Part shown: in pieces, positions 11,944 through 21,571 of the stretch
Layout of the letters: the number at the start of each line of letters is the position of its first letter
How positions within the stretch are numbered: position 1 is the first letter of the stretch
NCBI RefSeq assembly: GCF_000016185.1
Contig: NC_011420.2
Location: 578,501-642,500, forward strand
Length of the DNA stretch: 64,000 bases
Direction of reading: 5' to 3'
Source of the DNA: Rhodospirillum centenum SW
GTDB lineage: Bacteria > Pseudomonadota > Alphaproteobacteria > Azospirillales > Azospirillaceae
Position numbers and translations under genes: made by a program
Notes under the pieces: generated by a model
Database searches by the model: none
The model's input: only the letters and a program-made list of their open reading frames with translations
What the model was told of the DNA's origin: nothing

Positions 11944-12597
11944 TCAGACGGGCCGGGGCGCCGCCGCGTCGCACCGCGCCACCCAGGCGTGCAGCGCGTC
12001 GAACGTCTCCTGTGCCGCGGCGATGCAGGCGGTTTCCGCCTCCGGATCGGCGCAGGCGGTGGCCAGTGCCTGCTGGAAGGCCCGCCACTGCCGCCCGATG
12101 TTGGCGCCGTAGGAGGTGTAGTAGCGCATGGCCCGGCCCCCCAGGCCGCCGAACACCTCCCCGTACTGGCGCACCACCACCTGGCCGCCCAGGGTCGATC
12201 CCTCCAGCACGTAGAGCGCGCCGAAGGCCCGTGCCAGCCCGTCCACCGGCGGCAGGTCTGGGCAGTCCGGCGCCGAGTCCGGGTCCAGGCCCAGATCCTC
12301 CAGGTCGGCGGCCAGCAGGGCGGTGCGGCGGCGCTGGTCGAAATCCAGCCCCGTCTCCGACCAGTCGAGGCCGCCCAGCACCGACTCGAGCGGGCGGTGG
12401 AAGCCCAGCAGGATGCCCAGCCAGCCAAGATAGCCGTCCAGAGTCCGCAGCCGCCGCTCGGGATCGACCTGCGCCTCCAGGGCCACATGCTGGTCGCGGG
12501 TGGCGAGGCGGAGCCTCACCGGCAGGTCGGTCTTCCGCGGGGGAGTCCTGGTGGCCTCCGGTCCCGTCGAGCCCGCCTCGATCATCGTACTGTCCAT
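11944..12597 (-). CDS. Biliverdin-producing heme oxygenase
   Basis: 217-residue heme oxygenase of the bacterial BphO/HmuO fold, converting heme to biliverdin, iron and CO. The proximal heme ligand is probably His37 in the N-terminal helix (LRLATRDQHVALE), and the distal helix has the family sequence ALYVLEGSTLGGQVV. A GTG at 12615 is an alternative start adding six residues. Such genes often sit beside a bacteriophytochrome, but none is present here; the neighbours are a convergent Nudix gene and a polysaccharide deacetylase. Biliverdin could serve a phytochrome elsewhere, or the enzyme may be for iron release. Confidence 0.88.
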   Translation of the reverse strand: MDSTMIEAGSTGPEATRTPPRKTDLPVRLRLATRDQHVALEAQVDPERRLRTLDGYLGWLGILLGFHRPLESVLGGLDWSETGLDFDQRRRTALLAADLEDLGLDPDSAPDCPDLPPVDGLARAFGALYVLEGSTLGGQVVVRQYGEVFGGLGGRAMRYYTSYGANIGRQWRAFQQALATACADPEAETACIAAAQETFDALHAWVARCDAAAPRPV

Positions 12598-12691
12598 TCC
12601 TCTTCCGTATGGCACGGCTGACCCTACGCTCCGACAGGCGGAGTTCCAAGTGCGTGCGATAAAAAAAGGACCATCGCGGCGGCCCCCGTCC

Positions 12692-16662: not shown

Positions 16663-17041
16663 CGGCGCCTTTCCTTCCGGGGTATCGTGCGCGGCGGAGT
16701 GTAGGCGGCCGGCCGATCGCCGTCGATTGCGCTGTCCGCATCGGACCGTTCCCGCGGCGGACCGTTTCCCCTGCCACCCGACTGAACCCGGTTCCTGGTT
16801 AACGGCTGCTTTCCGGACCGCCGGAAGGCACCGGCGAAATGGGGGTGCGCCATGCCTCGGCGCGGTCCGCGATGGCACGGGGCCGCATCGTCGCGGCGGC
16901 CGGAACCGGTGCTGGCGGGCGGTCCCGCGGCCCGGTCCTGTCGCCTGCGGCGGCCACTTCGGCCGTTTCGGCTGCCGGCCCCGTGTCATGCTGTTCCGGA
17001 AGGGCCGGCACAGGCCCGGCCATGGCAGGCGGGAGAGGCGG
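16663..17041. other. Divergent intergenic region envC/rocD, no gene seen
   Basis: 379 bp between two divergently transcribed genes. Short open frames run through it in several frames, but they are Arg/Pro/Gly-rich and lack a plausible start. It must carry promoters for both sides; a gttaacgg stretch at about 16798-16805 is the only AT-rich spot noticed. No terminator or clear inverted repeat was found. Confidence 0.5.
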
Positions 17042-18280
17042 ATGGACGGCGGCTTCGGAGCGGCGGGCGGCGCGATGGCCATCGAGGCGCGCTGGTGCGC
17101 CCGGAACTACCGGCCGCTGCCGGTCGTCATCAGCCGGGCCAAGGGCGTCTGGCTCTGGGACTCCGACGGCCGCCGCTACCTGGACATGATGAGCGCCTAT
17201 TCGGCCGTCAATGTCGGCCACGGCCATCCACGGGTGCTCGACGCGCTGCAGCAGCAGGCCGGCCGGGTCGCCGTCGTCTCCCGCGCCTTCCACACCGACC
17301 GGCTGGGGCCGTTCCTGGCCCGGCTCTGCGCCCTGGCGGGGCTGGACGCCGCCTGCCCCATGAACACCGGGGCGGAGGCGGTGGAGACGGCGATCAAGGC
17401 GGCGCGGCGCTGGGGCCACCGGGTCAAGGGCATCCCCGACGGCCATGCGGAGATCATCGTGGCCGAGGGCAACTTCCACGGCCGCACCACGACCATCGTC
17501 GGGTTCTCCTCGGAAGCCGACTACCGCGACGGCTTCGGCCCCTTCGCCCCCGGATTCCGGGCGGTGCCCTTCGGCGACGCCGCGGCGGTGGAGGCCGCCA
17601 TCGGCCCGCACACCGCCGCCGTGCTGGTGGAGCCGATCCAGGGCGAGGCCGGGATCGTGGTGCCGCCCGGGGGCTATCTGCGGCGGCTGCGCGAGATCTG
17701 CGACCGCCACGGCGTCCTGCTGATCCTGGACGAGGTGCAGTCCGGCCTGGGCCGTACGGGCGCCTGGTTCGCCTTCGAGCACGAGGGCATCCGCCCCGAC
17801 GGGCTGTGCCTGGGCAAGGCGCTGGGCGGCGGGGTGATGCCCGTCTCCGCCTTCGTGGCGCGGCGCGGGCTGATCGACATGTTCGAGCCGGGCAACCACG
17901 GTTCCACCTTCGGCGGCAACCCGCTGGCCGCGGCCGTGGGCGAGGCCGCCCTGGCGGTGATCGAGGAGGAGGGGCTGGTGGCCCGCTCCGCCGAACTGGG
18001 CGCCCACCTGATGGAACGGCTGCGCCGGATCGACTCGCCCCTGGTGCGGGAGGTGCGCGGCCGCGGCCTCTGGGTCGGGGTCGAGATCGACCCGGCCCGC
18101 GTCTCCGCCCGGGCCGTCTGCGAGGAACTGATGCGCCGCGGCGTGCTGAGCAAGGAGACGCACGAGACCGTGATCCGGCTGGCGCCGCCGCTGGTGATCG
18201 ACCGCGAAACCCTGGACCACGGCATCGACCGGCTGGAGGAGGCGCTCGCCGCCCTCGCGGCCGGGCCGGCCGCGGCCTGA
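17042..18280 (+). CDS. rocD: Ornithine--oxo-acid aminotransferase
   Basis: PLP-dependent class III aminotransferase, 412 residues, transferring the delta-amino group of ornithine to 2-oxoglutarate to give glutamate semialdehyde. Family signatures: MSAYSAVNVGHGHPRV, NTGAEAVETAIKAARRW, EGNFHGRTTTIVGFS, VEPIQGEAG, the metal/PLP Asp in LILDEVQSGLGRTG, PLP Lys in CLGKALGGGVMPVSA, and NHGSTFGGNPLA. These fit ornithine aminotransferase better than acetylornithine or GABA transaminase. An ATG at 17075 (MAIEARW) could be an alternative start. Thirty-one base pairs downstream is a guanidino-group hydrolase and then an Lrp regulator, which together suggest arginine catabolism through ornithine. Confidence 0.9.
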   Translation: MDGGFGAAGGAMAIEARWCARNYRPLPVVISRAKGVWLWDSDGRRYLDMMSAYSAVNVGHGHPRVLDALQQQAGRVAVVSRAFHTDRLGPFLARLCALAGLDAACPMNTGAEAVETAIKAARRWGHRVKGIPDGHAEIIVAEGNFHGRTTTIVGFSSEADYRDGFGPFAPGFRAVPFGDAAAVEAAIGPHTAAVLVEPIQGEAGIVVPPGGYLRRLREICDRHGVLLILDEVQSGLGRTGAWFAFEHEGIRPDGLCLGKALGGGVMPVSAFVARRGLIDMFEPGNHGSTFGGNPLAAAVGEAALAVIEEEGLVARSAELGAHLMERLRRIDSPLVREVRGRGLWVGVEIDPARVSARAVCEELMRRGVLSKETHETVIRLAPPLVIDRETLDHGIDRLEEALAALAAGPAAA

Positions 18281-18311
18281 CCCGCCCCCCATCGCCGACG
18301 CGAGGACGACC

Positions 18312-19292
18312 GTGACCATCGACGTGACCGCACCCGGCCAGCGGCCTTCCGCGCAGCCCGAGCCCGCCCCGCCGCGCATCATCATGTGCGCCCCCGATCA
18401 TTTCGAGGTCAGCTACACCATCAATCCCTGGATGCGCCCCGACGAATGGGAGGCCCGGCGGTCGGAGCTGAGCGGGGCCGCCGCCGCCGGCTGGTCGGCG
18501 CTGCGCCGCCGCCTGCAACAGCTCGGCGCGGCCGTCGAGCTGGTGGCGCCGCGCTCCGGCCTGCCCGATCTGGTCTTCACCGCGAACGCCGCGGTCGTGC
18601 TGGACGGCAAGGCGCTGGTCGCCCGCTTCCGCCATCCCGAGCGCCGGCCGGAGGAGCCGCACTTCCGCCGCTTCTTCGACGGGCTGGCCGCCCGCGGGCT
18701 GCTGGACGAGGTCCACGACATGCCGCCGGGCGTCTGCCTGGAAGGGGCGGGGGACTGCGTCCACGACGCCGGGCGGGGCGTCTTCTTCCTGGGCCATGGC
18801 TTCCGCTCCGACCGGGAGGCCGCGGCGGTCGTGGCCGACCTGTTCGGGGAGGAGGTGGAGCCGCTGGAACTGGTGGACCCGCGTTTCTACCACATGGACA
18901 CCGCCCTCTGCCCGCTCTCGGGCGGCGAGGTGCTGTACGTGCCGGGCGCCTTCTCCGCCGAGGGGCGCGGCCGGCTGCGCGAGCGGATCGGGGCCGACCG
19001 GCTGATCGAGGTGCCGGAGGCGGATGCCGTGCGGCTGGCCGCCAACGCCGTCAATCTCGGCCGCGACGTGGTGCTGGCCGAGGCGTCGGACGATCTGAAG
19101 GCGGCGCTGGCCGAGCGGGGCTACAGCGTCCACGAGGTGCCGATCCGCAGCTTCGGGCTTTCCGGCGGATCGGCCTTCTGCCTGACCCTGCGGCTGGACC
19201 GCCGTTCCAACCGCCGCTCCGGCCGCCCTGTCGGCGGGACCGGGCCGGGGGCGGCCGCCGACGCACCGGGTCAGCCCGCGCTGCTGGACTGA
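18312..19292 (+). CDS. Guanidino-group hydrolase, arginine deiminase/dihydrolase superfamily
   Basis: 326-residue pentein-fold enzyme. Catalytic residues can be placed: Cys290 in GGSAFCLTL, His194 in FYHMDTALC, Glu144 and Asp148 in CLEGAGDCV, and Asn92 in VFTANAAVV. The N-terminal CAPDHFEVSYTINPWM closely resembles the start of cyanobacterial arginine dihydrolase (ArgZ/AgrE), which converts arginine directly to ornithine, CO2 and ammonia; dimethylargininase and arginine deiminase share the fold. Position directly after ornithine aminotransferase favours an ornithine-producing activity. GTG start with a gaggac stretch upstream. The C-terminal ~35 residues are Arg/Gly/Pro-rich and look disordered. 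Exact substrate not provable from sequence. Confidence 0.85.
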   Translation: MTIDVTAPGQRPSAQPEPAPPRIIMCAPDHFEVSYTINPWMRPDEWEARRSELSGAAAAGWSALRRRLQQLGAAVELVAPRSGLPDLVFTANAAVVLDGKALVARFRHPERRPEEPHFRRFFDGLAARGLLDEVHDMPPGVCLEGAGDCVHDAGRGVFFLGHGFRSDREAAAVVADLFGEEVEPLELVDPRFYHMDTALCPLSGGEVLYVPGAFSAEGRGRLRERIGADRLIEVPEADAVRLAANAVNLGRDVVLAEASDDLKAALAERGYSVHEVPIRSFGLSGGSAFCLTLRLDRRSNRRSGRPVGGTGPGAAADAPGQPALLD

Positions 19293-19345
19293 TCCGGCGG
19301 CATCGGACAAGCTGGCGCCCGCGGAAACCGGGGGCCGGGGAGGCC

Positions 19346-19843
19346 ATGCGACGCAGGCTGGACCAGATCGACCTGAGAATCCTCCAGGAACTCCAGGACG
19401 ACGGGCGCATCACCAACCAGGCCCTGTCCGAGCGGGTGGGGCTGTCGCCCCGTCCCTGCCTGGAACGGGTGCGCCGGCTGGAGAAGGAGGGGCTGATCGT
19501 CCGCTACCAGGCGCTGGTGGACGTGCGCAAGCTGCAGTCCTGCGTCTTCGTGCTGGCCCAGGTGGCGCTGGAGAAGCAGGGCAGGGACGCGCGGCACCGC
19601 TTCGAGCGGCGCCTGCGCGACACGCCCGAGGTGATCGAGTGCTTCGAGGTCAGCGGCCCCTTCGACTACATCGCCAAGCTGGTGTGCGAGGACCTGGACG
19701 CCTATCAGGACCTGACCACGGGCTGGATCGACGACCCCGAACTGGGCGTCGCCCGCGTCGTCACCAACGTGGTGCTGCGGCCGGTGCGCGACTTCGGCCG
19801 CTATCCCATCTTCGCCGGCGAGGGGCCGGCATCCGCGGGATAG
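19346..19843 (+). CDS. Lrp/AsnC family transcriptional regulator
   Basis: 165-residue regulator. An N-terminal winged helix-turn-helix (LDQIDLRILQELQDDGRITN, then LSERVGLSPRPCLERVRRLE) occupies residues 5-65, and an AsnC-type ligand-binding RAM domain (about 70-150; VIECFEVSGPFDYIAKLVCE) follows. It is the third gene of the rocD cluster, 53 bp after the guanidino-hydrolase. Lrp relatives such as PutR/ArgP-like activators control ornithine, arginine and proline catabolism in alphaproteobacteria, so it probably senses one of these amino acids and controls the upstream genes. It converges on the ArsR gene with a 19-bp gap. Confidence 0.92.
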   Translation: MRRRLDQIDLRILQELQDDGRITNQALSERVGLSPRPCLERVRRLEKEGLIVRYQALVDVRKLQSCVFVLAQVALEKQGRDARHRFERRLRDTPEVIECFEVSGPFDYIAKLVCEDLDAYQDLTTGWIDDPELGVARVVTNVVLRPVRDFGRYPIFAGEGPASAG

Positions 19844-19862
19844 GGCCGGGTGCGGGAGGGGG

Positions 19863-20219
19863 TCAGAACCCGACCGGCTCCGGCGCACAGGGCGGGCTCT
19901 TGCCGTCGCGGCGCACGCGCGGCCCCTCGCTCCCGAACAGCTCCAGGAGCGAGGCCATGATGAGCGGGGCGGCGTCGCCGTTCAGCGAGTAGTAGATGGT
20001 CTGGGCGCTGCGGCGGGTCCGCACCAGCTTGTCCCGGCGCAGCCGGGCAAGGTGCTGCGACAGGGCCGACTGGGACAGGCCCACCAGACGCTCCAGCTCA
20101 CCGACCGATCGCTCCTGCTCCATCAGGTGGCAGAGGATCAGGATGCGGCGCTCGTTCGCCATCGCCTTGAGCAAGGCGGCGGCCCGGCGTGCGTTGACTT
20201 TGAGGACGTTCACATTCAT
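19863..20219 (-). CDS. ArsR-family regulator, BigR/SqrR-like
   Basis: 118-residue winged-helix repressor. The HTH core SVGELERLVGLSQSALSQHL and the wing VRTRRSAQTIYYSL are typical of ArsR proteins, and the metal-binding ELCVC motif of ArsR/SmtB sensors is absent. The placement of Cys30 (LILCHLMEQERSV) and the HTH wording resemble the persulfide sensors BigR and SqrR. In those proteins a second Cys lies about 66 residues later; here that place (residue 96) is Gly, and the only other Cys is Cys111, in a C-terminal tail. It is divergent from a tusA-like sulfur carrier gene, which supports a reactive-sulfur role. That function is inference. Confidence 0.85.
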   Translation of the reverse strand: MNVNVLKVNARRAAALLKAMANERRILILCHLMEQERSVGELERLVGLSQSALSQHLARLRRDKLVRTRRSAQTIYYSLNGDAAPLIMASLLELFGSEGPRVRRDGKSPPCAPEPVGF

Positions 20220-20547: not shown

Positions 20548-20644
20548 CCCGGCCCGGCAAACATCGGCCCCATCACAGATTCTTCATGAATCCCGATGCC
20601 GTTTGCGGGATGATGCGGGTGGAGGAAGCCACCCAGGAAAAACG

Positions 20645-21571
20645 ATGCATACGGCGTTGTTCACCCACTCCGCCTGTCTCGACCACGACACGGGCGAGGG
20701 GCATCCCGAATGCCAGGAGCGGCTGCGGGCCGTGCTGCGGGCGCTGGAGGATGAGGCCTTCATGTTCCTGGACCGGCGCGAAGCCCCCCGCGTGACGCGG
20801 GAACAGCTTGAGCGCGTCCACCCGGCCAGCTACCTCGACAGCCTGGAAGCGGCCATGCCGCAGAGCGGCTACGCCACCCTGGATGCCGACACCCTGGTCT
20901 CCCCCGGCTCGTGGGAAGCCGCCCTGCGCTCGGCCGGCGCCGTCTGCGCCGCCATCGACGCCGTGCTGGCGGGGGAGGCCCGCAACGCCTTCTGCGCCGT
21001 CCGCCCGCCCGGCCACCATGCCGAACCCGACAAGGCCATGGGCTTCTGCCTGTTCAACAATGTCGCGGTCGGGGCTGCCCATGCCCGGGCCTGCGGGCTG
21101 CGCCGGGTGGCCATCATCGACTTCGACGTCCACCACGGCAACGGCACCCAGACCTACTGCCAGCACGACCCGTCCCTGCTCTATCTCTCCACCCACCAGT
21201 GGCCGCTCTATCCCGGCACCGGCTCCGCGCGGGAGCACGGCGACTACGACAACGTGGTGAACGCCTGCCTGGGGCCGATGTCCGGCAGCCCGGAGTTCCG
21301 CCACGCGGTGCAGACCAAGCTGCTGCCGCGGCTGGACGCCTTCCGGCCGGAGATCCTGCTGATCTCCGCCGGGTTCGACGCGCACAGCCGCGACCCCATG
21401 GCCGGCCTGCACCTGATGGAGGACGATTTCGCCTGGGTGACGGAGAAGCTGGGGGAGGTGGCGGCGAAGCACGCAGCAGGTCGCATGGTGTCCGCCCTCG
21501 AAGGCGGGTACGATCTGCGCGCCTTGGCCAACTCCGCCGCCGTCCACGTCAAGGTGCTGATGGCGGTCTAG
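20645..21571 (+). CDS. Histone deacetylase-family amidohydrolase
   Basis: 308-residue zinc-dependent deacetylase of the HDAC/acetylpolyamine amidohydrolase fold. The catalytic set is intact: His124/His125 in PPGHHAE, the zinc ligands Asp161 and His163 in DFDVHHGNGTQ, and the third metal Asp in SAGFDAHSRDP, plus the glycine-rich end SALEGGYDL. In bacteria these enzymes act on acetylated polyamines, acetoin-linked proteins or other small amides; the substrate cannot be told here. In Rhodospirillales this gene is commonly found just before xseB-ispA-dxs, as seen here, so the position is ordinary. Confidence 0.9.
   Translation: MHTALFTHSACLDHDTGEGHPECQERLRAVLRALEDEAFMFLDRREAPRVTREQLERVHPASYLDSLEAAMPQSGYATLDADTLVSPGSWEAALRSAGAVCAAIDAVLAGEARNAFCAVRPPGHHAEPDKAMGFCLFNNVAVGAAHARACGLRRVAIIDFDVHHGNGTQTYCQHDPSLLYLSTHQWPLYPGTGSAREHGDYDNVVNACLGPMSGSPEFRHAVQTKLLPRLDAFRPEILLISAGFDAHSRDPMAGLHLMEDDFAWVTEKLGEVAAKHAAGRMVSALEGGYDLRALANSAAVHVKVLMAV

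What the first reader, a model, noticed from the sequence alone, without database searches (positions are those of the whole stretch)
17042..19843. Three-gene arginine route: guanidino-hydrolase with OAT and an Lrp regulator
Seen: ornithine aminotransferase, then a pentein-fold enzyme with Cys290/His194/Glu144/Asn92 and the CAPDHFEVSYTINPWM start, then Lrp. Known: cyanobacterial ArgZ/AgrE with a like start converts arginine to ornithine, CO2 and ammonia without citrulline. Inferred: together they would take arginine to glutamate semialdehyde in two steps without the urease/arginase or ADI pathways. Annotation pipelines probably label the middle gene dimethylarginine hydrolase.
Basis: partly seen in the sequence, partly recalled or inferred. 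Interest (0 to 1): 0.65.

Follow-up and report, generated by a model that had tools for sequence, protein, structure and literature searches.

The report
Arginine dihydrolase operon with ornithine aminotransferase
This bacterium appears to break arginine straight down to ornithine with an enzyme type known from cyanobacteria and to pass the ornithine to a neighbouring aminotransferase; similar gene teams occur in many other bacteria, sometimes under the name of a different enzyme.

Summary
Confirmed. Window 17042-19843 (+) encodes an ornithine aminotransferase (OAT), a stand-alone pentein enzyme and an Lrp/AsnC-family regulator. The enzyme is closest to arginine dihydrolases ArgZ and AgrE (phmmer 7e-62; model Z 44, 1.0 Å over 269 residues; Z 30 for dimethylarginine hydrolase, DDAH). 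It carries ArgZ's Asn/His/Glu/Cys set and Asp, not the Lys of DDAH, two residues after the catalytic His. The complete genome gave no hit for arginase, arginine deiminase, AstA, SpeA-type decarboxylase, PF02423 ornithine cyclodeaminase or urease, but has PutA. Of 93 related loci with enough flank, 78 have an ornithine-consuming enzyme adjacent or fused (52 OAT, 26 cyclodeaminase); 64 of the 68 with OAT or PF02423-type cyclodeaminase also have an Lrp/AsnC gene within 3 kb. An 18-bp element precedes OAT in 10 of 11 same-family operons.

Likely function: arginine → ornithine + CO2 + 2 NH3, then ornithine → glutamate semialdehyde, under a local regulator. Activity is untested, and NCBI's curated arginine-dihydrolase cut-off is not met. 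A similar cluster is known in mycobacteria (rocD, Rv2323c, regulator Rv2324), where the enzyme is labelled dimethylarginine hydrolase and its reaction was left open.

The parts
16957..16974 (+). 18-bp conserved element CTTCGGCCGTTTCGGCTG upstream of OAT; candidate operator or promoter of the operon
   Evidence: Pattern CTTCRRCCGNTTCGGCTG found once in each of 10 of the 11 same-family operons, upstream of OAT, not in the eleventh (L012/L133), and in no other of the 136 loci held; one hit with up to 3 mismatches in 64 kb, 0.10 expected; the main conserved block of the 200-nt upstream alignment of those 10. Function inferred.
17042..18280 (+). ornithine aminotransferase (RocD/OAT type)
   Evidence: TIGR01885 486.4 bits, cut-off 378.4; PF00202 409.6 bits; start at 17042 supported by three relatives
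18312..19292 (+). stand-alone arginine-dihydrolase-like pentein enzyme (relative of the ArgZ/AgrE N-domain), 326 aa
   Evidence: phmmer E 6.9e-62 to ArgZ 6jv0; AF2 mean pLDDT 91.5; VIA Z 44.4, 1.0 A over 269 residues to 6jv1; N92/E144/H194/D196/C290
18585..18587 (+). codon of Asn92, equivalent to ArgZ Asn71
   Evidence: alignment mapping
18741..18743 (+). codon of Glu144, equivalent to ArgZ Glu118
18891..18899 (+). codons of His194-Met195-Asp196 (ArgZ His168 and Asp170; Lys in place of Asp196 in DDAH)
   Evidence: DDAH Lys described in a passage of PMC11659421
19179..19181 (+). codon of the nucleophile Cys290, equivalent to ArgZ Cys264
19346..19843 (+). Lrp/AsnC-family transcriptional regulator
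   Evidence: PF13412, PF13404, PF01037 over gathering scores; below the cut-off of NF008370 Lrp (125.5 vs 233)

Best explanation
The three genes form a self-contained arginine catabolic operon. The middle enzyme works as an arginine dihydrolase: Cys290 attacks the guanidinium carbon, His194 and Glu144 activate water, and Asn92 lets the enzyme hydrolyse twice, so that arginine goes to ornithine, CO2 and two ammonia without releasing citrulline. The OAT then moves the delta-amino group to 2-oxoglutarate, giving glutamate semialdehyde, which PutA encoded elsewhere in the genome can oxidise to glutamate. The Lrp/AsnC protein senses arginine or a product and controls the operon, possibly through the conserved 18-bp element upstream of OAT. 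Shown here: gene content, homology, fold, residues, no hit for the alternatives in the genome, recurrence in other genomes. Inferred: the reaction, the role of Asn92 (by analogy with ArgZ N71; what N71 does is recalled), co-transcription and regulation.
For: Nearest solved structures are ArgZ and AgrE (E about 1e-61; DDAH1 about 1e-6). The model superposes on ArgZ at 1.0 A, Z 44.4, against Z 30.4 for DDAH, 28.5 for AstB and 26.8 for ADI. N92 is Asn in 109 of 109 aligned in-group rows and Asp in 5 of 5 outgroup rows; D196 is Asp in 109 of 109 and Lys in both DDAH rows. The tree joins window, ArgZ/AgrE and actinobacterial relatives apart from DDAH, which stands on a long branch. Own complete genome: no hit for PF00491, PF02274, PF04958, PF17810, PF02423 or PF00449, each of which rang in control genomes; bifunctional PutA present. 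78 of 93 loci with at least 1300 nt on both sides have OAT (52), PF02423-type OCD (16) or ArgZ-type OCD (10) adjacent or fused (the two OCD queries identified). Lrp/AsnC within 3 kb in 48 of 52 OAT loci and 16 of 16 PF02423-OCD loci, 0 of 10 ArgZ-type loci, 1 of 15 without partner. Mycobacterial precedent: loss of Rv2323c cut 13C excess in proline from arginine from 49.8 to 6.4% (PMC4569260).
Against: No assay. NF052232 Arg_dihydro scores 249 bits, under its cut-off of 450, and a dimethylargininase model, NF045659, scores nearly as well (225, cut-off 300). 15 of 93 loci have no ornithine partner. An ornithine-using neighbour would fit a citrulline hydrolase equally well. The window protein is outside the clade that holds the characterised ArgZ and AgrE; no starred set of up to half the rows holds it, and the order of the three main clades is unresolved. 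Loci were gathered by similarity, and the genome contigs patterns contained FYH-x-D and EGAGD, so invariance of H194, D196 and E144 is partly built in for the 77 loci kept from that scan; N92 and C290 were in no pattern. In M. tuberculosis the adjacent rocD is frameshifted and its deletion did not affect growth on arginine, and the Rv2323c mutant kept some nitrogen uptake from arginine (PMC4569260). Not searched in the genome: TIGR00300-type OCD, AdiA-type decarboxylase, arginine transaminases.
Confidence: 0.85

Rival explanations
1. It is a dimethylarginine dimethylaminohydrolase that frees citrulline and dimethylamine from methylated arginine; the OAT beside it serves a separate ornithine supply.
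For: Pfam DDAH_eukar passes its gathering score (48 vs 23), as it also does in a cyanobacterial ArgZ-type protein (47.4); five plasmid relatives are annotated dimethylargininase; NF045659 scores 225 bits.
Against: All three dimethylargininase models are under cut-off. Asp196 replaces the DDAH Lys that makes room for the methyl groups (PMC11659421 passage; alignment). Structure and tree favour ArgZ. Citrulline release does not explain OAT or OCD adjacent or fused in 78 of 93 loci.
Confidence: 0.05
2. It is an arginine deiminase making citrulline, with the ornithine partners fed by a separate carbamoyltransferase.
For: Same fold and catalytic Cys/His/Glu; Asp at the position after His-x shared with ADI (passage).
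Against: PF02274 below its gathering score (14.8 vs 22.8). Asn92 instead of the second Asp described for ADI and DDAH. Superposition on ADI is much looser (Z 26.8). None of the nine flanking frames scanned is a carbamoyltransferase or carbamate kinase (the whole genome was not searched for these).
Confidence: 0.05
3. It hydrolyses citrulline to ornithine (CtlX-like), so the operon salvages citrulline rather than arginine.
For: Ornithine as product also explains the OAT and OCD partners; a Cupriavidus relative matches the CtlX model weakly (26.4 bits).
Against: The window protein has no match to NF046062 CtlX at E up to 1, and the Cupriavidus match is far under its cut-off of 334. The nearest solved relatives are arginine dihydrolases.
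Confidence: 0.05

Closest known systems
ArgZ (Sll1336) and AgrE (Alr4995) of cyanobacteria, N-terminal arginine dihydrolase domain
   Same: About 41% identity, same fold to 1.0-1.4 A, same catalytic residues and equivalents of ArgZ N71, D170, R90 and R139
   Different: The window enzyme is a separate 326-aa protein, not fused to an ornithine cyclodeaminase; its genome has no PF02423 OCD (the ArgZ-type TIGR00300 OCD was not searched); its neighbours are OAT and an Lrp/AsnC regulator; it lies in another clade
Mycobacterial roc cluster: Rv2319c, rocE, rocD, Rv2323c and regulator Rv2324 (PMC4569260)
   Same: OAT gene, an enzyme that NCBIfam's NF045659 is named after by its label, and a regulator gene side by side; induced by arginine; enzyme needed for normal growth on arginine; no arginase homologue found by the authors
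   Different: Rv2323c is annotated as dimethylarginine hydrolase and its reaction was left open; rocD is frameshifted in the M. tuberculosis complex; the cluster includes a permease, none seen among the frames scanned beside the window operon. Rv2323c itself was not aligned here, only four actinobacterial proteins over the NF045659 cut-off; that Rv2324 is of the Lrp/AsnC family is recalled
Cupriavidus-type loci: divergent Lrp/AsnC gene, enzyme, ornithine cyclodeaminase (for example L060)
   Same: Same enzyme family and regulator family
   Different: The second step is OCD (NF005762 540 bits, cut-off 350), which makes proline, instead of OAT
Bacillus rocDEF arginase pathway (as described in PMC4569260)
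   Same: Arginine to ornithine to glutamate semialdehyde to glutamate
   Different: The first step by arginase releases urea; no arginase or urease hit in this genome

Membership tests
Arginine dihydrolase (ArgZ/AgrE N-domain) | Catalytic Cys/His/Glu plus Asn71 and Asp170 equivalents | tested here: met
   C290, H194, E144, N92, D196
Arginine dihydrolase (ArgZ/AgrE N-domain) | Closest fold and sequence among solved structures | tested here: met
Arginine dihydrolase, NCBIfam NF052232 | Curated cut-off of 450 bits | tested here: not met
   249.1 bits; so not filed under that curated model, only as working like it
Bifunctional ArgZ/AgrE, NCBIfam NF052231 | Fusion to an ornithine cyclodeaminase domain | tested here: not met
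   326-aa protein; 255.5 bits against cut-off 1025
Arginine dihydrolase | Arginine to ornithine + CO2 + 2 NH3 without citrulline release | not testable with these tools
   needs an assay
Dimethylarginine dimethylaminohydrolase (DDAH) | Lys two residues after the catalytic His | tested here: not met
   Asp196; Lys in L114 and L115; role of Lys from a passage of PMC11659421
Dimethylargininase, NCBIfam NF045658/NF045659/NF045660 | Curated cut-offs (450, 300, 340 bits) | tested here: not met
   24.8, 225 and 52.5 bits
DDAH_eukar PF19420 | Pfam gathering score 23 | tested here: met
   48 bits; a cyanobacterial ArgZ-type protein passes it as well (47.4), so it does not separate the two
Arginine deiminase PF02274 | Pfam gathering score | tested here: not met
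   14.8 vs 22.8
Citrulline hydrolase CtlX NF046062 | Match to the curated model | tested here: not met
   no match at E up to 1
Ornithine aminotransferase TIGR01885 | Curated cut-off 378.4 bits | tested here: met
   486.4 bits; the other OAT model, NF003145, is under its cut-off (550.9 vs 656)
Lrp/AsnC regulators | AsnC-type HTH and AsnC ligand-binding domain | tested here: met
   PF13404, PF01037 over gathering scores
Leucine-responsive Lrp NF008370 | Curated cut-off 233 bits | tested here: not met
   125.5 bits
Mycobacterial-type roc cluster | OAT, enzyme and regulator genes side by side | tested here: met
   one actinobacterial locus (L111) has the enzyme and OAT adjacent, three others (L108-L110) do not
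Mycobacterial-type roc cluster | Adjacent amino-acid permease (rocE) | tested here: not met
   None of the nine flanking frames scanned between 11944 and 24765 is a permease

The most novel reading that the evidence does not exclude
The whole Asn92/Asp196 family, including the actinobacterial proteins now named dimethylargininase (NF045659, the Rv2323c type), are arginine dihydrolases: a widespread urea-free and citrulline-free arginine-to-ornithine route with interchangeable second steps (OAT, separate OCD, or fused OCD), run under a dedicated Lrp/AsnC regulator in many Pseudomonadota. It would name the missing ornithine-forming enzyme in arginase-less bacteria.
Probability: 0.6. Interest if true: 0.65.

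Novelty: new variant of a known kind. Interest (0 to 1): 0.5.

Why it matters
The usual list of four bacterial arginine routes (deiminase, arginase, decarboxylase, succinyltransferase; so listed in PMC4569260) leaves out the dihydrolase route, which to my knowledge (recalled) was shown in cyanobacteria. This locus lies in a complete genome where the enzymes searched for those four routes gave no hit, so the route can be tested directly in an alphaproteobacterium. Similar gene teams recur in Burkholderiales, Caulobacterales, Rhodospirillales and others. It also bears on an open question in mycobacteria, where the homologue is needed for normal growth on arginine, arginine is turned into ornithine, no arginase homologue was found, and the gene is labelled dimethylarginine hydrolase (PMC4569260). 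The active-site pattern (Asn + Asp here, Asp + Lys in DDAH) offers a simple rule for checking database names.

Tried and rejected
Considered and rejected: DDAH (Lys position, tree, structure), ADI (score, Asn92), CtlX (no match). Fusion of OAT and enzyme, suggested by open frames of 733-792 aa in some relatives, was not supported: the two genes align as separate stretches, and high GC content keeps frames open. L020, L024-L026, L029, L035, L047, L083, L091, L098, L101, L102 and L108-L110 have no ornithine partner; L024 instead lies just upstream of argG; the rest are unexplained. A sigma-70 scan found no promoter in 16700-20100. The 18-bp element has no exact match outside ten same-family operons; allowing mismatches, one search lists scattered hits with 2 (L094), 3 (L050, L069) or 4 mismatches elsewhere, which I take for chance. 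The eleventh same-family operon (L012/L133) lacks it. A mycobacterial sequence could not be had: the genome-contig scan returned none among its 80, and the one mycobacterial plasmid hit (H10) was left alone because it might be a virulence plasmid. Literature searches listed no paper joining stand-alone arginine dihydrolase with OAT in proteobacteria; the library is open-access only, and the two JBC structure papers on ArgZ and AgrE were not held, so what N71 does is recalled; only the PDB title naming ArgZ(N71S) comes from a search. Rows dropped: duplicates of one locus and L013 (fragment) before the tree; L112 (29-30% identity) before the neighbour count; 12 of 105 loci with under 1300 nt on one side before the count of 93. 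Self-matches are in the counts: the second regulator query and the OCD query come from L060, the ArgZ-type OCD query from L087. In one search three DDAH-like loci (L115, L117, L119) were translated on the wrong strand; L115 was corrected and L117 and L119 left out.
Full report
Observation. OAT passes the curated TIGR01885 cut-off (486.4 vs 378.4 bits); a second OAT model, NF003145, and the acetylornithine models listed are under theirs. The regulator has the AsnC HTH and ligand-binding domains but is below the cut-off of the Lrp model.

The middle enzyme. By phmmer its nearest solved relatives are ArgZ (6jv0, 6.9e-62) and AgrE (6lrf, 2.4e-61), then DDAH1 at about 1e-6. An AlphaFold2 model from 37 sequences of window and loci (mean pLDDT 91.5) superposes on ArgZ with Z 44.4 and 1.0 A over 269 residues; then come DDAH of Pseudomonas aeruginosa (Z 30.4, 2.2 A over 252), AstB (28.5) and ADI (26.8). 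In NCBIfam it scores 249 bits for Arg_dihydro (cut-off 450) and 225 for the dimethylargininase model labelled Mtb (cut-off 300), so no curated name applies.

Active site. Mapped on ArgZ native numbers, N92 = N71, E144 = E118, H194 = H168, D196 = D170, C290 = C264, with R111 = R90 and R165 = R139. The PDB titles of 6juz (N71S) and 6jv1 (C264S) fix the numbering. In 109 aligned in-group rows (window, ArgZ, AgrE, L112 and 105 other loci) N92 is Asn in 109, D196 Asp in 109, E144 Glu in 109 and H194 His in 109; C290 is Cys in 108, with one gap. Outgroup rows in correct frame: the two DDAH rows have Asp and Lys at the N92 and D196 places, L118 and L120 Asp and Asp, L116 Asp and Met. Passages of PMC11659421 say that the second place is Asp in ADI and Lys in DDAH, where it lets in the dimethylamino group, and that a second Asp faces the guanidino group in ADI and DDAH; that this second Asp is the N92 place is my reading of the alignment. 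So the enzyme differs from both. Caveat: the patterns held FYH-x-D and EGAGD, so H194, D196 and E144 are partly selected for in the 77 loci kept from that scan; N92 and C290 are not. The four actinobacterial proteins L108-L111, over the cut-off of the dimethylargininase model (387-438 bits, cut-off 300), carry the same eleven residues as the window.

Tree. With DDAH as outgroup, the quick tree of 114 rows places the window in a clade of 83 rows (SH-aLRT 95), nearly all Pseudomonadota (two rows are from records named Actinobacteria and Acidobacteria). Beside it stand a set of 21 rows with ArgZ, AgrE and bacterial kin (80; its core of 19 rows, 96) and the four actinobacterial rows (99). The order of these three is unresolved. 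All of them, with the archaeal L112, are apart from the DDAH and DDAH-like rows (95), and DDAH stands on a long branch (2.98 on each side of the drawn root). Support is SH-aLRT only and long branches are present.

Genome. It is one contig of 4,355,543 bases, 100% complete, with a single copy of the enzyme. Family searches gave no hit for arginase/agmatinase, ADI (37), PF02423 OCD (38), AstA (44), urease alpha (46) or the SpeA arginine-decarboxylase domain (77); each of these rang in 2 to 9 of 14 control genomes. A bifunctional PutA is present (PRK11904 1495.6 bits, cut-off 747; TIGR01238 629.1, cut-off 485.2). Arginine transaminase, AdiA-type decarboxylase and TIGR00300-type OCD were not searched.

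Distribution and neighbours. In the same class 16 of 337 genomes gave a match at E up to 1e-30, own genome included; among 59 relatives 13 at E up to 1e-20, own included. Of these 93 have at least 1300 nt on both sides: 52 have OAT adjacent (31 upstream, 21 downstream), 16 a separate PF02423-type OCD, 10 the ArgZ-type OCD fused or adjacent, 15 no such partner. The query OCDs are confirmed by curated cut-offs (NF005762 540 vs 350; TIGR00300 608 vs 411). A looser search with two regulator queries finds an Lrp/AsnC gene within 3 kb (centre to centre) in 48 of 52 OAT loci and 16 of 16 PF02423-OCD loci, in 0 of 10 ArgZ-type loci and in 1 of 15 without partner; with the window regulator alone and a stricter score it was 30 of 52. 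Two regulator hits lie further than 3 kb in the 105 loci as first fetched, many of which have only short flanks. The loci are related and were gathered by similarity, so these counts are not independent; on the tree the partner and its side change at least 14 times, so the link with ornithine use was kept or re-made repeatedly.

Upstream element. In 10 of the 11 same-family operons, CTTCRRCCGNTTCGGCTG lies upstream of OAT, at window 16957-16974; in the alignment of 200 nt before OAT of those ten it is the main conserved block, with a CTGTCG a little upstream. The eleventh (L012/L133, order Lrp-OAT-enzyme) lacks it. No other of 136 loci has an exact match, and the window has one hit with up to three mismatches where 0.10 is expected. 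It is present before the OAT of L002, which has no Lrp within 3 kb. I read it as a candidate operator or promoter; nothing shows which.

What is known. In M. tuberculosis the cluster Rv2319c-rocE-rocD-Rv2323c is induced over 20-fold by arginine and Rv2324 next to it 6-fold; loss of Rv2323c impairs growth on arginine and cuts 13C excess in proline from 49.8 to 6.4%. The authors found no arginase homologue, saw ornithine formed, and left the reaction open, quoting the dimethylarginine hydrolase annotation. Against a simple parallel: rocD is frameshifted there and its deletion was without effect (in M. smegmatis it mattered), and the Rv2323c mutant kept some nitrogen uptake from arginine (PMC4569260; abstract, passages, the Results part on Rv2323c and the whole Discussion seen). 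A 2024 review repeats the DDAH role (PMC11008464, passages). PMC11659421 notes that the bifunctional cyanobacterial enzymes cluster with a larger group of uncharacterised proteins (one section read). The R. centenum genome paper has no occurrence of 'arginine' in its main text (PMC2890560, term search). Searches of an open-access library listed no paper linking a stand-alone arginine dihydrolase with OAT in proteobacteria.

Verdict. It is not new enzyme chemistry but another arrangement of it: a stand-alone dihydrolase-like enzyme with OAT and a local Lrp/AsnC regulator. It recurs widely in the loci found, and where plasmid records named it, it bore the name of another enzyme (6 of 12 records).

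Noticed in passing
window 16957-16974: 18-bp upstream element conserved in 10 of 11 same-family operons and without exact match in the other loci; candidate regulator site.
   Followed up: partly
L108-L111 (actinobacterial plasmid records): Proteins over the cut-off of the dimethylargininase model NF045659 carry the arginine-dihydrolase residue set, not the DDAH one; L111 has OAT beside it.
   Followed up: partly
L134 7302-8537: In a small alphaproteobacterial genome the ArgZ-like gene lies directly upstream of argG (TIGR00032 341.9 bits, cut-off 268.2), hinting at an arginine cycle rather than breakdown.
   Followed up: partly
L108 1-9127: In Pseudonocardia plasmid pFRP1-1 the enzyme gene sits among nonribosomal peptide synthetase, cytochrome P450 and adenylation-domain genes, perhaps making ornithine for a natural product.
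   Followed up: no
window 11944-12612 (-): Heme oxygenase domain protein (PF01126, 37.9 bits), a few genes before the operon.
   Followed up: no
window 20603-21568 (+): Histone-deacetylase-family protein (PF00850, 300 bits), followed by polyprenyl synthetase and Dxs genes.
   Followed up: no
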